Part shown: one piece after another, positions 38,834 through 52,671 of the stretch
Position numbering within the stretch: the first letter of the stretch is position 1
Layout: the number at the start of each line of letters is the position of its first letter
Assembly (NCBI GenBank): GCA_002011815.1
Contig: MTOV01000020.1
Span: 54,942 to 107,612, forward strand
Reading direction: 5' to 3'
Length of the DNA stretch: 52,671 nucleotides
Source: Nitrospirae bacterium JdFR-86
GTDB taxonomy: Bacteria > Nitrospirota > Thermodesulfovibrionia > Thermodesulfovibrionales > JdFR-86
Translations under genes and position numbers: made by a program
Notes under the pieces: generated by a model
What the model was told of the DNA's origin: nothing
What the model saw: only the letters and a program-made list of their open reading frames with translations
The model's database searches: none

Positions 38834-40543
38834 CTATACAATCCTTATCTTGGTTACCGGTTTGCCCTCGGCGTCAAGGACGTGCACTGCGCATGCCATA
38901 CACGGGTCGAACGAGTGTATTGTCCTGAGTATCTCGATAGGCTGATTCGGGTCTTTCACAGGTGTTCCGACGAGTGCAGACTCATAAGGCCCTCTCTGCC
39001 CTTTTGCATCTCTTGGCGAACCGTTCCATGTGCTCGGCACAACGCACTGGTAGTTTGCAATCTTTCTGTCTTTTATCCTTACCCAGTGTCCGAGTGCGCC
39101 TCTTGGCGCTTCATGGAAGCCGTAGCCTTGTGCCTCTTTAGGCCAGGTTGAGGGGTCCCATTTGCTTCCGTCATGGACTCTGAAGTCTCCTCTTTTTATG
39201 TTCTCTATAAGCTGTTCTATCCAAACAGTGAGCATCTCTGCGGTAACGAGAGTTTCCACTCCTCTTGCGGCTGTCCTTCCGAGTGTCGAGAACAGGGCTT
39301 CAGGACCTACATTGAGTTTCTTGAGCACAAGGTTGATGACTTCCTGTATCCTTTTGTGTCCGGAAGCATAGGCAACGAGCATTCTTGCAAGAGGTCCGAC
39401 CTCCATGGGCATGTCGTCGTATCGAGGGGCTTTAAGCCAGCTGTATTTGCCGTCAGTGTTGAGGTGTTCGTATGGAGGTTTAGGTCCTGTGTATTTGTAG
39501 TTTGTCTCGCCGTCCCACGGATGTTTGGGTACAGAATCGCCCTCTTTGTATTCATACCACGAGTGGGTTACGTATTCCATTATCTTTTCGTGGTCTACAG
39601 GATGCACTTTGCTCAGGTCTTTGTTCTTGATTACTCCTCTTGGAAGCCAGAGGTTGTCTGTGTTGGAGATGTTGTCATTGGGGAATTCACCGTATGCAAG
39701 GTAGTTTCCGACACCTTCGCCGTATTGAGCCCATTCTTTGTAAAAAGATGCCACTGCGAGAAGGTCTGGGATATAGACCTTTTCCACAAACTCCTTTGCC
39801 TTTTTTGCAAGTGTGAGCATATGGGCAATGGAGATGGTGTTCAGTGCGCTTTCGCTGTTCGGGTCGATGGGCACAGCCATTCCGCCGACAAGATATGTCT
39901 GGGCATGAGGGTTCTTGCTTCCTAATATAGCGTGAATCTTTATTACGTCTTTCTGCCAGTCGAGTGCTTCCAGATAGTGCGCAACAGCCATGAGGTTTGC
40001 TTCAGGCGGAAGTTTGTATGCAGGGTGTCCCCAGTAAGCGTTGGCAAAAGGTCCAAGCTGTCCGCTTTCAACGAATGTCTTGAGCTTTTTCTGAACCTCG
40101 CTGAAATAATCGGTGCTTGAGTTATGCCAGTCTGATATGGCCTGAGCGAGAGAGGATGTCTTTTTGGGGTCTGCTTTCAGGGCGCTGACGATGTCAACCC
40201 AGTCGAGGGCGTGGAGGTGATAGAAATGTATTACATGATCCTGAACATACTGGATTCCTGTTATGAGATTTCTTATGATCCTTGCGTTGTCCGGTATAGT
40301 TATATCAAGTGCGTTTTCTACAGCTCTCACGGAGCTGGTGGCGTGAACCGTCGTTCAAACACCTCATATTCGTTGAGTGAATGCCCATGCATCACGAGGG
40401 TCTCTTCCTTTAAGTATTATCTCCATTCCTCTGAACATCGTGCTTGATGCCCATGCGTCTTTGACTCTGCCGCCTTCTACCTGAGCCTCTATTCTCAGGT
40501 GACCCTCGATTCTGGTTATAGGGTCAACTACGATTTTAGCCAT
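38834..40543 (-). CDS. hyaB: [NiFe] hydrogenase large subunit with two in-frame UGA codons (putative double selenocysteine)
   Basis: Reading from ATG 40543 (GGGAGG seven bases upstream) gives [19 protein letters not shown], the standard start of group 1 large subunits. Codons 60 and 63 are TGA (40366-40364 and 40357-40355), at exactly the two cysteines of the L1 motif: R-I-U-G-V-U-T-T-V-H in place of RICGVCTTVH. The frame then stays open for 498 codons without a break and ends with the intact L2 motif DPCMACAVH (C548, C551) plus a 15-residue tail for the protease. Total 569 residues, normal length. Known [NiFeSe] enzymes carry selenocysteine in the L2 motif, not here. A hairpin lies at 40321-40337. 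A pseudogene is the alternative, but two nonsense changes only at nickel ligands make that unlikely. Confidence 0.85.
40321..40337 (-). promoter_or_regulatory. Candidate bacterial SECIS hairpin in hyaB
   Basis: The mRNA has a perfect 6-bp stem, CAGCUC / GAGCUG, with a CGUGA loop containing GU. Its loop begins 23 bases after the second UGA and 32 bases after the first. As I recall, bacterial SECIS elements need a G in the first two loop positions and a UGA-to-loop distance of roughly 16-37 bases; both UGAs satisfy this. The stem codes T69-S70-S71, where relatives usually have Leu-Ala-Ser. Confidence 0.6.
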
Positions 40544-40555
40544 TTAATACCCTCC

Positions 40556-41659
40556 CTACTCAGTTGTTTCCTTTTCTTTTGGTTTTCCTTTGACAGCCCT
40601 TGCTATTCCGTGCACCGCAATACCTGCGGCTGTTACAGCTGCAAGACCAGCTCCGATTTTGTCAGCAGTGCTTTCGATACCAAAGCCCGGGACTTTCGGA
40701 AGCCTCTTATAGAACGGGGTCATGGTATCCCAGAAGCGAGGTGCAGCGCATCCTATACAGCCGTGACCAGAACCTACAGGCCAGTTCGTCCCTTCGTTCC
40801 ATCTTATTACAGGACAATTTTTGTAGGTTTCAGGTCCTTTGCATCCCATTTCATAGAGGCACCAGCCTTTTCTGTGCCCTTCATCTCCCCACTGTCTTAC
40901 GAACTGTCCTGCATCAAAGTGCGCTCTTCTTTCACAGTGGTCATGGATTCTTTCGCCGTATGCAAAGAGTGGACGTCCATGGCTGTCAGTTGCAGGGAAA
41001 GTGCCAAAAGTAAGATAGTGAACGATAGTGGCAGTGAGGTTTTCCACGTTCATAGGGCAGCCGGGCAAGTTTATCAGTGTTATTCCCCGCACTGCGTCTT
41101 TCACTCCGACTGCACCGGTAGGATTAGGGTCTGCTGCTGGCCAGCCACCATCCCATGCGCAAGCGCCTACTGCTATAGTGGCAAGGGCATTGCCGCAGAC
41201 TTCACGCACGATGTCAAGTGCAGACCTGCCGCCTATACAGCAGTAAATTCCTCCGTCCTTTGTCGGAATAGAGCCTTCTACCACTGCAATGTATTTCCCC
41301 TTCTGGTGTTTGACTACATCATCACGGGATTTTTCCGCCTGCTTGCCGGCAGGAGCCATGATGGTTTCGTGATAATCAACTGAAAGGACATCAAGGACGA
41401 TTTCAGCTACCGTCGGCTTGTTTGCCCTCAGGAAGGACTCGGTGTCTCCGGCACAATCCTGAAACTCCAGCCACACGAGTGAGGGTTTTCTGGCTTTCTC
41501 AAGCGCCTCTGCTATCTTTGTGGCAAATCCTGCAGGTAGAGCCAAAGTAGCAGCCATTGCAGTGCAGAATTTCATGAAGTCCCTACGTGAAACGCCTCGT
41601 TTTAAAAGCCTACCTACGATGTCAATGTGGTCATTTTCACGATGGCCCAAAGATTTCAC
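40556..41659 (-). CDS. hyaA: [NiFe] hydrogenase small subunit, Tat-exported
   Basis: 367 residues. The Tat signal has SRRDFMKF (24-31) and a hydrophobic stretch. Proximal-cluster ligands are C69, C167 and C201; the fourth position, normally Cys in CxxC, is Asp (C-A-G-D72). Distal ligands are H239, C242, C267 and C273; medial C282, C301 and C304. A C-terminal hydrophobic helix (GAGLAAVTAAGIAVHGI) anchors it in the membrane. It is a periplasmic H2-uptake subunit handing electrons to the cytochrome b. The listed start is GTG 41659, which overlaps the GGGAGG site; TTG 41650 has better spacing and may be the real start. Confidence 0.95.
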   Translation of the reverse strand: MKSLGHRENDHIDIVGRLLKRGVSRRDFMKFCTAMAATLALPAGFATKIAEALEKARKPSLVWLEFQDCAGDTESFLRANKPTVAEIVLDVLSVDYHETIMAPAGKQAEKSRDDVVKHQKGKYIAVVEGSIPTKDGGIYCCIGGRSALDIVREVCGNALATIAVGACAWDGGWPAADPNPTGAVGVKDAVRGITLINLPGCPMNVENLTATIVHYLTFGTFPATDSHGRPLFAYGERIHDHCERRAHFDAGQFVRQWGDEGHRKGWCLYEMGCKGPETYKNCPVIRWNEGTNWPVGSGHGCIGCAAPRFWDTMTPFYKRLPKVPGFGIESTADKIGAGLAAVTAAGIAVHGIARAVKGKPKEKETTE

Positions 41660-45444: not shown

Positions 45445-45531
45445 TGCCATCGAAAGGGTAAAGCACGGGTAACCGTGTGGCACAAAGCCACCTGTCCGGT
45501 ACAATCGGATAGAGGGGCTGTCGAAATGGCA
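45445..45531 (+). ncRNA. GEMM-type (class I) cyclic-dinucleotide riboswitch
   Basis: The outer stem is TGCCAT/ATGGCA. Inside are AAAGGGTAAAG, a P2 hairpin with a GUAA tetraloop (CACGG-GTAA-CCGTG), the conserved GGCACAAAGCCAC segment, a third stem and GGGGCTGTCGAAATGG. The order and conserved blocks match GEMM RNAs such as Vibrio Vc2 and the Geobacter aptamers. The G before the U-A-A-A block aligns with the residue that favours c-di-GMP over cGAMP in class I, but ligand choice needs a test. A terminator follows 15 bases later, so it probably controls transcription. Confidence 0.82.
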
Positions 45532-45624: not shown

Positions 45625-46425
45625 GTGTTTAAGCGACTGACGATAATAGTTGCAGTGGTGTTATTGATGAGTACTTTAGCAGGCTGTAAGCTCAGGACGC
45701 CTGAGATTAGAGGTGTAGTGCTGGATGCAGAGACAGGGGAGCCTGTTGAGGGGGCGTGGATTTCAAGTACGTTAACAGTTAAGACGAAGACCGTAGGTGG
45801 AGATGTGCACAGTTATCTGTCTGTAGGACAGCCGCATACCAGAACTGATAAAGAAGGTAGATTTATCATCCCATCAAAGAAATTTAAAAAACCTCCCTTT
45901 CCGATAGGCTTTGGGACTGAGGTGGAGAGTTTCAGTGTTAATGCTAACACCATAGATGACAAAAGTGGAGGTTTTTATCTGAAGAGAGAAGAATATATTG
46001 GAAAGAAACAAATAGAAGTCGTCATTTATGTTAAACCTTGGAAAAAGGGATTAACTGATGAAAGAGAGTATAACTCTTATATTAGGGCACTTTATAACTA
46101 TTGTCTAACTGGCCGTTTTGGTATCGAGGTTCCTCCAGTTGAAGGCGGCTGTGATGAATGGGAACTTGATTTTGCAATTGCAAAGCATGAGAGGTTTCTT
46201 AAACGACTTGGAGAGCCAAAAACCATGGACCAGAGAACTTACTATACAGGTACAATGAGACGGTTGGCTTATCTTTACAAAAAGAAAGGTGATTATAAGA
46301 AAGCAATAGAGACATTCAAGAAAGTTAAAGAGTTTAAAGAAAAACGAGGATCTAAACTATGGATAAAAGAATTTGAATTTCAAATAAACGAGCTTCAACG
46401 TTTACTTGATAAGGAGTGGAAATAG
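45625..46425 (+). CDS. Riboswitch-controlled lipoprotein with carboxypeptidase-regulatory-like domain
   Basis: 266 residues. GTG 45625 is chosen: GGAGGA is directly upstream, and a TTG at 45613 would overlap it. A lipoprotein signal ends in LMSTLAGC. Residues about 25-120 are a CarboxypepD_reg/SpaA-like beta sandwich (IRGVVLDAETGEPVEGAWISSTL, TRTDKEGRFIIPS). The C-terminal part is helical, with a TPR-like unit (LAYLYKKKGDYKKAIETFKKVKEFKE). It is likely anchored in the outer membrane and expressed with the giant protein that follows after 11 bases. Confidence 0.8.
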   Translation: MFKRLTIIVAVVLLMSTLAGCKLRTPEIRGVVLDAETGEPVEGAWISSTLTVKTKTVGGDVHSYLSVGQPHTRTDKEGRFIIPSKKFKKPPFPIGFGTEVESFSVNANTIDDKSGGFYLKREEYIGKKQIEVVIYVKPWKKGLTDEREYNSYIRALYNYCLTGRFGIEVPPVEGGCDEWELDFAIAKHERFLKRLGEPKTMDQRTYYTGTMRRLAYLYKKKGDYKKAIETFKKVKEFKEKRGSKLWIKEFEFQINELQRLLDKEWK

Positions 46426-46436
46426 GGAGGGTGTCC

Positions 46437-49400
46437 ATGTCCAGGAGGAGTCTTTCAGTAGTTTTTTCATTGATACTGATCCTTTCGATGGTTTCTTTGA
46501 CATCTGGGTTTGATAATAATGCGAATCGTGTAAATCCAGATGACCCGAATGATACACGGCAACGTCCTTACACCCGTGAAAATGCTGTAAAACCGCTTGG
46601 TGAAGGTGGTTACTTTGGCGGACATGATACTATTACCGCAGAGGGGATGCTTTTGAAGAAAAAAGTACATCAACAGACAGATCTGGACGGAGGAGAAGAT
46701 TTTAAAGAGTGGGCAGACGAATTAGCTCTTCCATTTCTCCGCATCGGTGTCCATGATGAGGACTCGACGAAGCTATTCGGAATTATACCTTTAAACGAAT
46801 CACCGATTGTTAAAGGTGAGAATGGTAATTACTTTCAGCATTTCTATGACCCTCGTGACGAGAAGGGATTAAAAGGGGTCTGGAAATCGGCACTTCAGAG
46901 AGCAGGAGAGTACGCTTTAGAGATATACAAGATAATAGGGTGTAGCCCTGATGGCGTAAGCGGTCTCTCTAACGAAGAGAAAAGTAAAGTATACCGCCTG
47001 TTCGGTCATATATTGCATCTTATTGAGGACATGGGCAATCCCGCCCACACGAAGGACGATATCCATGTCTTTACAAAGACCTTTGAGGATTATGTAAAGG
47101 AACATTGGGCAGATATTGTTAATTCTGATGCTTTTAAAGAGGGAGTTACTGTTGATGAGTATCTCAAGGGCAATTATGAAGTTGGCGATATATACAATCT
47201 TAAGCAGTTTTTTGTGGGACTTGCAAATACCAGCATGAGCTTACATACAGATTACTTAGGGAAGATTACTGATGAACAACTTCAGGAAAACGTGGACAGG
47301 CTTATTCCTGAAACCATTAAATATGTGGCGGGATATATAGATGCAATATATAAGGAAATGAATAGAGGGGGGAGTTTAAGTAGAAGAGATACTGGCCACT
47401 GGATATTACTGGCGAGTCTTGAGTCGGATGTTTACACGCTTGCACAGTTAATAGGAGACACTGAAAACGAAGAAGGCTTTACCTGTGATTTGCCGCCTGA
47501 ACAGCCCACCCCTGCCAATGATAATCCAGATGACAGATTCGATGTAAGTGATGAATTCTATTGGGAAAAAGAGTTTGGATTAACTGACTATGACCTGACG
47601 AACTTTTATATGAGAACGGCTGTCAAGAAGGGCAAAATAAGCGTCTGGTATAAGAAACGGTTTATGGATATGTTCATAGAGGGGAGGACAAAATACATGG
47701 ATGCTCCTCTGGAAGTAAAGGAAGCAATAGAGGCTGAGTTTCAGGCAATAGGAAAGAAGCTGGAAGAAAGAGATGCAAGGGTTGACTGGGAAGGTGCCCC
47801 TGACATAGCACTCTTTACAAATGGCTACTACAAACCATCAATCTCGTTGATGTTAAAGATAGGCGAACCTGTTGCTTTCAAAGGATGGGATTTTGACCCT
47901 GCAATGGTAAAAGACCATCCAGTGATGCTGGTGCCTACAGGTGGTTTCTACGGAATGGAAAACTCAGAGGTCTTAAAGGCAAAGCTTGGGGAGTATGTCA
48001 AAAACGGTGGAACACTTGTTGTATTTACGCAACAGCATGGCAGTGACTGGAGTCTTTTGCCTACACCGCCAGACCCTGAAACAGGAGAAAAAAGACCTGT
48101 GACAGGCTATGGTTATCAGGAAGACCAGAGCTGTCAGTATAATTCAGTCTATATAGATACCTGGCATCCCATGCTTTCGGGTTTCTCTACCTCGACCGCC
48201 AATATCGGGGTGGACGGTTATTTTACTTCTTATCCGGAAAACAGCACGATTTTGCTCAGAAGAGTCGCCAATGGTCAGCCAGCCATGATTATTTATCCCT
48301 ATGGGAAGGGTTATGTGGTGGCAACCACTTTATATACAGATTTTGCCTTCACACACAGTCAGGCAAACCAGACAGAAATAAAACTGGCACAGAACATTAT
48401 CTCATGGGCTAAGAAGCCCGATACCATTACTGAAGTAACACGAGGAGAAACAGTTAACCTTAACATTAGTCTGTCTAACTTTACCGATAAAGATGCAACA
48501 TCAGTAAAGTTCATCATACTTGATCCGTTGAGAAAGGTTGTGGGCGAGCAGACACAGGAGATTGCCATTCCTGCTGGTAAGACTGTTACGATTCCATATT
48601 CTTATACTGTTTCCTCCACCAGCCCTCTTGGCATTTATCATGTCGACTACGCTTTGCTTGACGCTGCGGGCAATGTCATCCAGCCCCAGGCAGAGACCGA
48701 CTCAGGCAGGTTTGCAGTAAGCAATCCGCCTCTAAATCCCTACGAAAGCCCTGATTTTGATTTTGCAATCCAGTCTGATGCAGAGCAGTACGCTTATGGT
48801 TCAACCGCTGTTTTTACTGTAAAGGCATGGAATAATACTAACAAGGATACACCGCTGACTTTCAAATACGACCTTGTGCACCTTGGACCTGACGGCTCTT
48901 GGATAAAAGGGAAGACGTATGATTTCAATGCACCTGCAAACGCCTCAATCTCCTTTAATATAGTCATTCCTGAGGTTAAACATCAGGGATGGCTTCGGGG
49001 ATGGTTTTATGATGAGTCTGGGAATACAGTAGGTTTTGCCCGGAAGGGCATATGGGTGTTTTCGCCCTCTGTCAGTATCGATGCCCAGACCAACCAGGCT
49101 GTCTATAAAAAAGGTGATACTGTCAACCTGACTTTAAGCCTCCAGAACAGACAGAATGCCGCCTATACTGCTGTATTGAAGGTGAACGTCTCAGACCCGT
49201 TGAACAGAAGTGTTTACGATACAACATTGGATGTAGCCCTTGCTGCCAACGAGACAGTGATGGAGAGCCTGAGTTTCTTACTGCCACAAACAGCGGAAGG
49301 CGGTTTCTATATAGTATCAGTCGAGGCGTATGATTCAGCAGGGAGAAAGATAGGAAGGGATTCAGTGTCTTTCGAACTTCCTAGAAGCCGGATTTCGGCT

Positions 49401-52400
49401 ATACCGGACCTGTCGGTCGCCTTCAGTGCAGGGACAAATACAATCTCTTTTATTCTGAACAATAACGGCAAGATATCCGTATCCTCGGGTGTGCTCGATG
49501 TAAACCTCATTGACCCTGAGGGTGCTGTTATATATTCCGGTAGTTTGCCTTTTGCTCTGACTGTGGGCGAAAGCAAGACTATTGATGTGCCTGTAACTAT
49601 CTCATCGCTTAAGTTTGGAGATTACACACTTACATATACCCAATCGGATGAGACGAAGACGGGAAAACCAATAAGCGTTATCATTCCTAATTCCGTAGCC
49701 ATAGGTTTTTCCTTTGACAAAACCTTCTACAGGATAAGGGAGGTAGTCGGTCTGACAGTCGGCGTTACCAATACAGGGAGGTTCAATCTGGATGGTGTCT
49801 CTGTGATGGTGTCTGTGCCGGATGCAGGTTACACTGATTCAACGATTATTTCATTGGGGATAAATAATACTATTTCACTGGATTGTGCGATACCTCTGCC
49901 TGAAACCCTGGCAGCAGGGCAACATAATATAGATGTGACCTTGCTCTTACCCTCAGGCAGTTCGATAACACAAACTTCTGAGTTTACAATTCCTGAATCA
50001 TCGTTGGTGATTGGGTATTCTGGGCCGACAACGGTTACTACCGGGGATGTGATAAATCTAACTATGGAAAATACTGGAGGGGTTGATACGAACTATACAG
50101 CAGAAGAGCTTTACATCATCGACAATAAAGGCGTTGTTATTTACAACGGAAGTGCAACAGATACCATTCTTGCCGGTGAGATAAAGACTCTGGCAGACAT
50201 TCATATATCGTCCCAGGCAGCTAGTAGCCTTGCTTTTCTGAATGTGCTGACCAGAGACTCTGAAACAGGCAGATTCACTGCATTCTCCAGAACCCTTGAA
50301 ATTACCGGCCTGACAGCAGAGTTACAAACAAGAACAGACAAGGACGCTTATCTGAAAACAGAGGTAATAACAGGTATATCGAACGTCATAAATGGCCAAT
50401 TCGGAATTGTAAATGGGATTTTGAATGTTACTGTGAGTAAGATGGAAACTCACAGAACGGGCGGGCAGTTCGATCACTTTCTGCCAAAGGAAGGATGGTT
50501 GCCCTTGGATTATGTCAGTGGAATTGCCATAGGTTCTGACGGTTCAATATATGTTTTGAATTTGGAAATAAGCTACGATCGTGTGCTTAAACTTGATAGT
50601 AACGGTAGAGTCATAATTTCGTGGGGTAGTTATGGCAGGAGTGATGGACAGTTTTATTCTCCAGATGGTATAGCCGTAGGCCCAGACGGTTCCGTGTATG
50701 TGGCGGATACCCATAATCAGCGCATTCAGAAATTCGATAGCAATGGTAATTTTATTACTAAGTGGGGTAGTTATGGCAGTGGCGATGGACAGTTCAAATA
50801 TCCGAGAAGTGTAGCTGTAAGCCCAGACGGTGCTGTGTACGTAGTAGATAGCTCGAATCACCGCATTCAGAAGTTCGACAGCAATGGTAATTTTATTACT
50901 AAGTGGGGTAGTTATGGCAGTGGCGATGGACAATTTAAGTATCCAGATGGTATAGCCGTAGGCTCTGACGGTTCTGTATATGTGGTGGATACCAATAATC
51001 ACCGCATTCAGAAGTTTGATAGTAACGGTAATTTTATTACTAAGTGGGGTAGTTATGGTAGTGGCGATGGACAATTTAGGTATCCAGATGGTATGACTAT
51101 AAGTTCTGACGGCCTAATATATGTAGTTGACAGCTCAAATTACCGCATTCAGAAGTTCAACAGCAATGGGAACTTTATAACCAAGTGGGGAAGCAGAGGC
51201 AGTGGTGATGGACAGTTTAGATATCCCTCTGGCATAGCTGTAGACCATGACGGCTTCGTATATGTAGGGAGCAGTTCCCTCAGCAGGATACAGAAATTCG
51301 ACGGCAATGGGAACTTTATTACAAAATGGCAGGGGGAAGGCAGTGACGATGGACAGTTTAATTTTCCAGAAGGTATAGCTGCAGGTCCTGACGGTTCTGT
51401 CTATGTGGCGGATACTTATAACCATCGCATTCAGAAGTTTAACAGCAATGGTGATTTTATTACTAAATGGGGAGATATAGGTCATGGTGACGGACAATTT
51501 TACTATCCAGAAGGTATAGCCGTAGGTTCTGATGGTACCGTTTATGTAGCAGATACGGATAACAACCGCATTCAGAAGTTTGACAGTAGTGGCAACTTTA
51601 TAACCAAGTGGGGCAGTTATGGCAGTGGAGAGGGGCAGTTTTGTCATCCGAGGGGTATAGCCATAGATCCTGAAGGTGCTGTTTATGTGGCAGATACTTG
51701 TAACAACCGCATTCAAAAGTTCGACAGTAACGGCAACTTTATAACCAAGTGGGGCAGTTATGGCAGTGGAGAGGGGCAGTTTTGTTATCCGTGGGACATA
51801 GCCGTAGATCTTGAAGGCTCTGTTTATGTGACTGATACCTGTAACAACCGCATTCAGAAGTTTGACAGTAGTGGCAACTTTATAACCAAGTGGGGCAGTT
51901 ATGGCAGTGGAAAGGGGCAGTTTTGTTATCCGGGTGGTATAGCTGCAGGATCTGACAGCTCTGTTTATGTAGTTGATACTTATAACTATCGCGTCCAGAG
52001 ATTTGACAGTAGTGGTAATTTTATTGCTAAATGGGGTAGTTATGGTGACAGCGATGGTCGGTTTAGATTGCCAAGAGGTATAGCCGTAAGTCCTGCTGGC
52101 TCTGTATATGTGGTAGATTTAAATAGTCACCGCATTCAGAAAATGGCCATCTCAAATGGAGCCTCTGGAATTCTCTTTGAAACCACAGTTCCAATTACCC
52201 AGGCTGCAAATACCGCACAGGAATATATCACTGACATAGGCACGCTGAATACAACAGGCAAGCTCTATCTAAATGCTGAACTAAAGAATGACCTCGGCCA
52301 GACAATAGCAAAAGATAAGTACTCCTTCTATATCATTGAGGGTAATACATTTCTTATATTCTCGACAGATAAGAAATACTATAGGCCTGGCGAGACAGTT

Positions 52401-52671
52401 ACAATAGTAGGCGAGGTAAGGAACCTAGCATCAATTACAGCTACGGAGCTAACATTGATTCTGAACCAAGACAGCCAGGCGCTGTATAGTGCGACATTTG
52501 ATCTCCCGGCCGGAGGTAGCTATTCATTTACCACCACAACAACGGCATCTGCCAAAGGGACATATGTGCTTACAGGCGTAGTTATGCAAGGCAACTCAGC
52601 GCTTGTTGAGATAACGGACCAGTACGAGGTGGCAAAACCCGTGGTAACGGCGGCGGTTACTGCGCCGGAGG
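46437..52671 (+). CDS. Giant secreted protein: PLC-like, Ig-like and NHL-repeat domains (partial)
   Basis: Open from ATG 46437 (GGGAGG upstream) to the window end, more than 2,070 residues, still unfinished. A signal peptide (SLSVVFSLILILSMVSLTSG) is followed by a zinc-dependent phospholipase C/P1-nuclease-like domain (about 40-310) with the ligand block FGHILHLIEDMGNPAH. A GATase-like Rossmann domain follows (HPVMLVPTGGFYGMEN... YVKNGGTLVVFTQQHG). Then come several Ig/CARDB-like beta-sandwich repeats (about 660-1340), twelve NHL repeats (about 1360-1900) and further Ig-like domains. It looks like a large extracellular or surface enzyme-adhesin. It is controlled by the upstream riboswitch. 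No active-site proof. Confidence 0.85.
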   Translation, partial: MSRRSLSVVFSLILILSMVSLTSGFDNNANRVNPDDPNDTRQRPYTRENAVKPLGEGGYFGGHDTITAEGMLLKKKVHQQTDLDGGEDFKEWADELALPFLRIGVHDEDSTKLFGIIPLNESPIVKGENGNYFQHFYDPRDEKGLKGVWKSALQRAGEYALEIYKIIGCSPDGVSGLSNEEKSKVYRLFGHILHLIEDMGNPAHTKDDIHVFTKTFEDYVKEHWADIVNSDAFKEGVTVDEYLKGNYEVGDIYNLKQFFVGLANTSMSLHTDYLGKITDEQLQENVDRLIPETIKYVAGYIDAIYKEMNRGGSLSRRDTGHWILLASLESDVYTLAQLIGDTENEEGFTCDLPPEQPTPANDNPDDRFDVSDEFYWEKEFGLTDYDLTNFYMRTAVKKGKISVWYKKRFMDMFIEGRTKYMDAPLEVKEAIEAEFQAIGKKLEERDARVDWEGAPDIALFTNGYYKPSISLMLKIGEPVAFKGWDFDPAMVKDHPVMLVPTGGFYGMENSEVLKAKLGEYVKNGGTLVVFTQQHGSDWSLLPTPPDPETGEKRPVTGYGYQEDQSCQYNSVYIDTWHPMLSGFSTSTANIGVDGYFTSYPENSTILLRRVANGQPAMIIYPYGKGYVVATTLYTDFAFTHSQANQTEIKLAQNIISWAKKPDTITEVTRGETVNLNISLSNFTDKDATSVKFIILDPLRKVVGEQTQEIAIPAGKTVTIPYSYTVSSTSPLGIYHVDYALLDAAGNVIQPQAETDSGRFAVSNPPLNPYESPDFDFAIQSDAEQYAYGSTAVFTVKAWNNTNKDTPLTFKYDLVHLGPDGSWIKGKTYDFNAPANASISFNIVIPEVKHQGWLRGWFYDESGNTVGFARKGIWVFSPSVSIDAQTNQAVYKKGDTVNLTLSLQNRQNAAYTAVLKVNVSDPLNRSVYDTTLDVALAANETVMESLSFLLPQTAEGGFYIVSVEAYDSAGRKIGRDSVSFELPRSRISAIPDLSVAFSAGTNTISFILNNNGKISVSSGVLDVNLIDPEGAVIYSGSLPFALTVGESKTIDVPVTISSLKFGDYTLTYTQSDETKTGKPISVIIPNSVAIGFSFDKTFYRIREVVGLTVGVTNTGRFNLDGVSVMVSVPDAGYTDSTIISLGINNTISLDCAIPLPETLAAGQHNIDVTLLLPSGSSITQTSEFTIPESSLVIGYSGPTTVTTGDVINLTMENTGGVDTNYTAEELYIIDNKGVVIYNGSATDTILAGEIKTLADIHISSQAASSLAFLNVLTRDSETGRFTAFSRTLEITGLTAELQTRTDKDAYLKTEVITGISNVINGQFGIVNGILNVTVSKMETHRTGGQFDHFLPKEGWLPLDYVSGIAIGSDGSIYVLNLEISYDRVLKLDSNGRVIISWGSYGRSDGQFYSPDGIAVGPDGSVYVADTHNQRIQKFDSNGNFITKWGSYGSGDGQFKYPRSVAVSPDGAVYVVDSSNHRIQKFDSNGNFITKWGSYGSGDGQFKYPDGIAVGSDGSVYVVDTNNHRIQKFDSNGNFITKWGSYGSGDGQFRYPDGMTISSDGLIYVVDSSNYRIQKFNSNGNFITKWGSRGSGDGQFRYPSGIAVDHDGFVYVGSSSLSRIQKFDGNGNFITKWQGEGSDDGQFNFPEGIAAGPDGSVYVADTYNHRIQKFNSNGDFITKWGDIGHGDGQFYYPEGIAVGSDGTVYVADTDNNRIQKFDSSGNFITKWGSYGSGEGQFCHPRGIAIDPEGAVYVADTCNNRIQKFDSNGNFITKWGSYGSGEGQFCYPWDIAVDLEGSVYVTDTCNNRIQKFDSSGNFITKWGSYGSGKGQFCYPGGIAAGSDSSVYVVDTYNYRVQRFDSSGNFIAKWGSYGDSDGRFRLPRGIAVSPAGSVYVVDLNSHRIQKMAISNGASGILFETTVPITQAANTAQEYITDIGTLNTTGKLYLNAELKNDLGQTIAKDKYSFYIIEGNTFLIFSTDKKYYRPGETVTIVGEVRNLASITATELTLILNQDSQALYSATFDLPAGGSYSFTTTTTASAKGTYVLTGVVMQGNSALVEITDQYEVAKPVVTAAVTAPE
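50514..52145 (+). repeat. Twelve tandem NHL repeats of about 141 bp
   Basis: Each unit codes about 47 residues of the form GIAVGSDGSVYVADTNNHRI-QKFDSNGNFITKWGSYG with GDGQF. Twelve copies would close two six-bladed propellers. Units near 51590-51910 are almost identical at DNA level over about 70 bases and contain cysteines lacking in the others, which suggests recent duplication. Confidence 0.9.

What the first reader, a model, noticed from the sequence alone, without database searches (positions are those of the whole stretch)
40321..40543. Hydrogenase large subunit with UGA at both N-terminal nickel-ligand cysteines
The hyaB frame, read from its proper start at 40543, meets TGA at codons 60 and 63 only. 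These are precisely the two cysteines of the L1 motif RxCGxCxxxH, one terminal Ni ligand and one Ni-Fe bridging ligand. Everything around them (ribosome site, N-terminus, 498 downstream codons, DPCxxC end, protease, HypC, cytochrome, small subunit) is intact. Established [NiFeSe] hydrogenases have a single selenocysteine in the C-terminal L2 motif. A double selenocysteine in L1 is, to my knowledge, not described; it would place Se at one bridging and one terminal site.
Basis: partly seen in the sequence, partly recalled or inferred. Interest (0 to 1): 0.95.

Follow-up and report, generated by a model that had tools for sequence, protein, structure and literature searches.

The report
Hydrogenase with two active-site selenocysteines
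Many uncultured bacteria encode a hydrogen-consuming enzyme in which two of the four amino acids that hold its nickel-iron centre are specified by UGA, almost certainly read as selenocysteine, at positions where no selenium hydrogenase was known to carry it.

Summary
The hydrogenase large subunit (40543-38834, minus strand) is a 569-codon frame interrupted only by TGA at codons 60 and 63, the two L1 cysteines that bind Ni. It is not decay: 71 of 131 related genes collected from Nitrospirota, Chloroflexota and other MAGs have the same two TGAs, 11 have TGA only at the second (bridging) position, none only at the first. Both flanks are under purifying selection. A small hairpin beginning 17 nt after the second TGA has compensatory changes in three of six pairs and unusually conserved codons, unlike cysteine-type homologues: a bacterial SECIS element. 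The genome encodes SelA, SelB, and SelD and FdhA with in-frame TGA themselves; only the 5' half of tRNA-Sec is in this assembly, but all 24 relatives tested carry tRNA-Sec(UCA). Best explanation: a group-1-type [NiFe] uptake hydrogenase with Sec at one terminal and one bridging Ni ligand of L1, both directed by one SECIS. Known [NiFeSe] enzymes have one Sec, in L2. I found no report of this, including in a 2026 inventory of prokaryotic selenoproteins. Insertion of selenium is inferred, not measured.

The parts
38834..40543 (-). hyaB-type [NiFe] hydrogenase large subunit, 569 codons, two in-frame TGA
40364..40366 (-). TGA codon 60, first L1 Ni ligand (terminal), predicted Sec
   Evidence: alignment to solved [NiFe] hydrogenases
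40355..40357 (-). TGA codon 63, second L1 ligand (Ni-Fe bridging), predicted Sec
   Evidence: the only TGA in the CxxU relatives
40321..40337 (-). apical hairpin of the predicted bacterial SECIS: CAGCUC-CGUGA-GAGCUG
   Evidence: covariation in 26 sequences; codon conservation
38900..38902 (-). TGT codon 548, first L2 Ni ligand (Cys), the position that is Sec in known [NiFeSe] hydrogenases
38891..38893 (-). TGC codon 551, second L2 ligand (Cys)
40556..41659 (-). hydrogenase small subunit with Tat signal
   Evidence: TIGR00391 447.9 bits, TIGR01409
38165..38824 (-). b-type cytochrome subunit
   Evidence: TIGR02125 153.3 bits
37674..38369 (-). HyaD/HybD maturation endopeptidase (domain at residues 72-220 of this frame; the true start is probably internal)
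   Evidence: TIGR00140 160.9 bits
37454..37696 (-). HypC-type maturation chaperone
   Evidence: TIGR00074 85.6 bits

Best explanation
This is a membrane-bound, Tat-exported, group-1-type [NiFe] uptake hydrogenase whose large subunit carries selenocysteine at both L1 ligands: Sec60 as a terminal Ni ligand and Sec63 as a Ni-Fe bridging ligand, with ordinary cysteines in L2. The ribosome reads both UGA codons with SelB and Sec-tRNA(UCA), directed by one SECIS hairpin that starts 17 nt after the second UGA. SHOWN: the gene structure, conservation of both codons, selection on both flanks, the conserved RNA hairpin, the Sec machinery genes. INFERRED: that Sec is inserted at both codons, that one SECIS serves both, and that the Se ligands tune the site (probably protection from, or faster recovery after, oxidation, or higher turnover).
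For: Same two TGAs in about 40 relatives of the order, including a complete single-contig genome, G016, that has tRNA-Sec(UCA), and in named Nitrospirota, Chloroflexota and other MAGs. Non-redundant L1 regions: 63 UU, 11 CU, 47 CC, 0 UC. Synonymous difference 0.74-1.03 against nonsynonymous 0.05-0.18 on both sides of the TGAs. Hairpin: 96.8% of cells paired, 20 cells changed on both sides, covariation 0.398 against 0.110 shuffled and 0.046 or less in slid controls. Codon identity at codons +6 to +12 after the second TGA is 0.62 in Sec-type genes and 0.30 in Cys-type, with background 0.43-0.44 in both. Own genome: SelA 619 bits, SelB with its winged-helix domains, SelD with in-frame TGA, FdhA with TGA at the U-H-A-P site. 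SelA in 38 of 40 genomes with TGA hydrogenases against 5 of 10 Cys-type (Fisher p 0.002). tRNA-Sec(UCA) in 24 of 24 order-level relatives tested and in 15 of 19 other carriers tested. L1 codons align with the Cys ligands of solved group-1 enzymes, best A. vinosum 3myr.
Against: No protein or selenium measurement. The assembly of the window's genome has only the 5' half of tRNA-Sec, so in this genome decoding is not fully documented. Four of 19 TGA-hydrogenase genomes tested gave no tRNA-Sec hit, and one (G097) gave neither SelA nor tRNA-Sec; these are draft MAGs. Per-sequence significance of the hairpin is weak (median p 0.086; a whole-region folding-energy test showed nothing); the signal comes from the comparison across sequences. 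The single-SECIS claim for the first UGA rests on spacing only.
Confidence: 0.88

Rival explanations
1. Only the second UGA is read as Sec; the first is read as something else (Cys or a near-cognate residue), or ribosomes often stop there as a regulatory switch.
For: Single-TGA relatives always have it at the second position; the hairpin is placed relative to the second UGA and is present in CxxU genes too.
Against: The first TGA is as strictly kept as the second within the UxxU clades, with no TGT/TGC/TGG alternation in the 58-gene clade of the window gene; its spacing to the hairpin loop (32 nt) still lies in the range I recall for bacterial SECIS elements (about 16-37 nt; from memory).
Confidence: 0.07
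2. UGA is read as cysteine by a dedicated opal-suppressor tRNA-Cys of the selC* type, restoring an ordinary [NiFe] site.
For: The genome has an 8/4 tRNA-Cys of selC* type (L005); selC* tRNAs with UCA anticodon and a second SelB are described in other anaerobes (PMC7609411).
Against: Every selC*-type tRNA found here has anticodon GCA, which does not read UGA; the complete genome G016 has UxxU and tRNA-Sec(UCA) but no such tRNA among its hits; genomes of family f9 have the tRNA but Cys-type hydrogenases.
Confidence: 0.04
3. Nonsense mutations in a dying gene, or sequencing/assembly error.
For: The contig comes from an assembly in 25 pieces.
Against: Same two codons in dozens of independent genomes; no other nonsense or frameshift; purifying selection downstream and upstream; conserved operon.
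Confidence: 0.01

Closest known systems
[NiFeSe] hydrogenases of sulfate reducers (HysA, Desulfovibrio/Desulfomicrobium)
   Same: Periplasmic NiFe-fold large subunit with UGA-encoded Sec as a Ni ligand and a SECIS just after the codon
   Different: HysA has one Sec, in the C-terminal L2 motif; here L2 is Cys/Cys and Sec replaces both L1 Cys. The protein is far from the HysA model (438.6 against a cut-off of 780 bits).
FrhA / VhuA-VhuU selenohydrogenases of methanogens
   Same: Sec as a Ni ligand in a NiFe hydrogenase
   Different: One Sec in L2 (UxxC), archaeal decoding with the SECIS in the UTR; group 3 enzymes (PMC13188914; partly own knowledge).
Group-1 [NiFe] uptake hydrogenases (A. vinosum 3myr, Salmonella/E. 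coli Hyd-1, Hyd-2)
   Same: 58% identity and full-length match to 3myr; same small subunit, cytochrome b and maturation genes
   Different: All four ligands are Cys there.
UxxU selenoproteins (Prx-like, metal-binding protein NF041115, FmdB family)
   Same: Two Sec in one UxxU motif, listed as predicted (PMC13188914)
   Different: Thiol-redox or small metal-binding proteins, not NiFe-cluster ligands.

Membership tests
[NiFe] hydrogenase large subunit (PF00374) | Full-length match with L1 RxCGxCxxxH and L2 DPCxxC | tested here: met
   811 bits, 1-508/508; L1 Cys read as TGA, all else kept
Group-1 respiratory uptake hydrogenase | Tat-signal small subunit, cytochrome b, HyaD, HypC in one operon | tested here: met
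   same order of genes in named relatives
[NiFeSe] hydrogenase, HysA type | Sec at the first L2 position | tested here: not met
   L2 is DPCMAC with TGT and TGC
[NiFeSe] hydrogenase, HysA type | Passes NCBIfam NF045518 | tested here: not met
   438.6 against 780 bits
Bacterial selenoprotein | In-frame UGA conserved, aligned with Cys in homologues | tested here: met
Bacterial selenoprotein | SECIS hairpin directly downstream of UGA | tested here: met
   covarying hairpin, codon conservation against Cys-type genes; a different hairpin at nearby positions in the RF clade
Bacterial selenoprotein | SelA, SelB, SelD and tRNA-Sec in the genome | tested here: inconclusive
   SelA, SelB, SelD present; tRNA-Sec only as a 5' half in this assembly, intact in 24/24 relatives tested
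Bacterial selenoprotein | Selenium in the protein | not testable with these tools
   needs mass spectrometry or 75Se
selC* tRNA-Cys recoding | UCA-anticodon tRNA-Cys able to read UGA | tested here: not met
   only GCA anticodons found

The most novel reading that the evidence does not exclude
A widespread, previously unlisted class of [NiFe] hydrogenases carries selenocysteine at both L1 ligands, including the first Sec at a Ni-Fe bridging position; the state has arisen or been lost several times (UxxU, CxxU, CxxC), with the bridging site Sec whenever any is, and one SECIS drives two UGA codons three codons apart.
Probability: 0.83. Interest if true: 0.93.

Novelty: new variant of a known kind. 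Interest (0 to 1): 0.9.

Why it matters
Selenium in hydrogenases was thought to sit at one terminal Ni site (L2) in some sulfate reducers and methanogens. Here nature repeatedly places it at the opposite pair of ligands, one of them bridging Ni and Fe, in uptake hydrogenases of uncultured, often subsurface bacteria. It gives bioinorganic chemistry a natural experiment on which chalcogen ligands control activity and oxygen damage. It also means that these hydrogenases are probably truncated in automatic annotation (the first ordinary frame starts at 40330, after both TGAs), so hydrogen-oxidising capacity of Nitrospirota and Anaerolineae may be under-counted or called pseudogenes. Two UGAs three codons apart under one SECIS are a good test of SelB mechanics.

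Tried and rejected
Whole-region folding energy against synonymous shuffles showed no excess stability for UxxU genes; only the apical hairpin in its fixed place is informative. The tRNA-Sec model's best hit in the own genome turned out to be an 8/4 tRNA-Cys(GCA), so the search was continued with a pattern from the relatives, which found the 5' half; the 3' half was sought and not found. Flanks of tRNA-Sec are not syntenic in relatives, so the gap could not be placed that way. One set of 80 handles exceeded a limit and was cut to 50. Literature searches found no earlier report; D. mccartyi Hup depends on Sec only through the host formate dehydrogenase. The AlphaFold model is only moderate (pLDDT 74.9; L2 loop under 50), so it was used for fold assignment, not for site geometry.

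Full report
WHAT IS THERE. The large-subunit frame runs from 40543 to 38834 on the minus strand: 569 codons, TAG stop, with TGA only at codons 60 and 63. Reading them as a residue gives a full-length PF00374 protein of 811 bits in a standard uptake-hydrogenase operon: Tat-signal small subunit, large subunit, b-type cytochrome, HyaD protease, HypC. The two TGAs replace the cysteines of QRI-C-GV-C-TTVHA. They align with the L1 Cys of solved group-1 hydrogenases (best: A. vinosum 3myr, 757 bits; the predicted fold matches the same entry, TM 0.88). From established structural knowledge of the D. gigas and D. vulgaris enzymes, the first L1 Cys is a terminal Ni ligand and the second bridges Ni and Fe. 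L2 keeps both cysteines. TGA is a normal stop for 10 of 33 genes checked in the window, so it is not globally reassigned.

IT IS CONSERVED. In 80 relatives of the same order, about 40 have a full-length large subunit with exactly two TGA, and the loci read in detail show R-I-U-G-V-U or, in one, R-F-U-G-V-U (L091). One of them, G016, is a complete single-contig genome. A scan of named GTDB genomes gave 80 homologues: double TGA in many Thermodesulfovibrionia/Nitrospirota MAGs, in Chloroflexota (Thermoflexus, Anaerolineae, Caldilineales and unplaced MAGs) and in a few MAGs labelled Deltaproteobacteria or Proteobacteria; ordinary Cys/Cys in Geobacteraceae, Desulfuromonadaceae, Chloroflexales and others. 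Among non-redundant L1 regions there are 63 UU, 11 CU, 47 CC and no UC. On a quick tree of 131 proteins (L1 ligands masked) the UU label needs 7 changes, at least 5 forced by well-supported branches; the window gene lies in an all-UU clade of 58, and a separate, deeper clade (R-F-C/U-G-V-U) has CU and UU members of its own. So Sec at these sites has come or gone several times, and the bridging position is the one that is Sec whenever any is. The root is not inferred, so gains and losses cannot be told apart.

BOTH SIDES ARE TRANSLATED. Against seven relatives synonymous differences are 0.74-1.03 per site while nonsynonymous are 0.05-0.18, both for codons 1-59 and for codons 64-569. A gene that ended at codon 60 or restarted after codon 63 would not keep both halves.

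A SECIS ELEMENT. After the second TGA lies CAGCUC-CGUGA-GAGCUG (40337-40321). In 26 distinct genes of this register, 96.8% of cells pair; pair 22-36 appears as AU, GC and UA, 23-35 as GC and CG, 24-34 as CG, UA and AU; the covariation score is 0.398 against 0.110 in shuffles and at most 0.046 when the partner is slid. Many other genes use a variant with a one-base bulge (ACCGC-C-UC-GGUGA-GA-GCGGU), and the RF clade uses a different hairpin slightly closer to the codon. The encoded peptide is nearly the same in Cys-type homologues, yet codon identity (given the same amino acid) over codons +6 to +12 is 0.62 in Sec-type and 0.30 in Cys-type genes, with 0.43-0.44 elsewhere in both. For example Val-Arg is GTG-AGA or GTG-CGA in 57 of 63 UU genes and scattered in CC genes. 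Single sequences alone do not give strong p-values, and total folding energy is uninformative.

MACHINERY. The own genome has SelA (619 bits), SelB with SelB-specific winged-helix domains, SelD with an in-frame TGA in the U-x-x-K motif, and a formate dehydrogenase with TGA at the U-H-A-P site: two further predicted selenoproteins. SelA is present in 38 of 40 genomes with TGA hydrogenases against 5 of 10 with Cys-type (p = 0.002; relatedness is not corrected for). tRNA-Sec with anticodon UCA is present in 24 of 24 order-level relatives tested and in 15 of 19 other TGA-hydrogenase genomes tested. In the window's own assembly the tRNA-Sec model finds only an unusual tRNA-Cys(GCA); a pattern from the relatives finds a 5' half of tRNA-Sec on contig C5 that breaks off just after the anticodon loop, beside defence-like genes, about 10 kb from the contig end. 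The 3' half is not in the assembly. I read this as an integrated or interrupted site whose remainder lies in an assembly gap; real loss in this strain cannot be excluded.

ALTERNATIVES. Decay or error is excluded by conservation. A cysteine-inserting suppressor is unlikely: the selC*-type tRNAs found (a class reviewed in PMC7609411) all have GCA anticodons, are not among the hits in G016, and occur in genomes with Cys-type hydrogenases. The open issue is whether the first UGA is read as Sec as efficiently as the second.

WHAT IS KNOWN. Established [NiFeSe] hydrogenases have one Sec, in L2, and a 2016 study describes the class as replacing one of four Cys (PMC4730141). A May 2026 inventory of 119 prokaryotic selenoprotein families, of whose table I read the first part and searched the whole text for 'hydrogenase', lists for hydrogenases only FrhA, MvhA/VhuA/VhuU and FrhD/VhuD, and states that [NiFeSe] hydrogenases are found only in sulfate reducers and methanogens (PMC13188914). 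Searches of the open-access library found no report of Sec in L1. Subscription papers and preprints were not searchable, so priority is not proven.

VERDICT. It works like a [NiFeSe] hydrogenase but is not a member of the HysA type, since two defining features were tested and not met. It is a new variant: Sec at both L1 ligands of a group-1-type [NiFe] hydrogenase.

Noticed in passing
G000:C2:51094-51188 (L005:1501-1595): An 8/4 tRNA-Cys with anticodon GCA, U discriminator and long variable arm (selC* type), also in G009, G033, G090 and family f9 genomes; function unknown.
   Followed up: partly
G000:C5:10017-10058 (L100, L101): A 5' half of tRNA-Sec that breaks off just after the anticodon loop, next to an OLD-type AAA ATPase, DUF4238, DUF6884 and an endonuclease/exonuclease-type gene: looks like an island at the tRNA-Sec gene.
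   Followed up: partly
window 45447-45525 (+) and 46416-52670 (+): A c-di-GMP-I riboswitch ahead of a TPR gene and a very long open frame (at least 2085 aa, runs off the window) with eleven 141-bp tandem repeats at 50500-52209: possibly a c-di-GMP-controlled large repeat protein.
   Followed up: no
L094:225-1889: A distant PF00374 protein in relative G044 with TGA only at the second L1 Cys (RICGV-U-PTAHG): L1 Sec also in a different hydrogenase branch.
   Followed up: partly
L111:2241 and L111:6171: One Nitrospirota contig carries two hydrogenase large-subunit genes about 4 kb apart, one CxxU (RF type) and one UxxU (RI type).
   Followed up: no
G000:C21 (L204) and G000:C1 (L208): In-frame TGA in selD and in a formate dehydrogenase gene: two more predicted selenoproteins of this genome.
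   Followed up: partly
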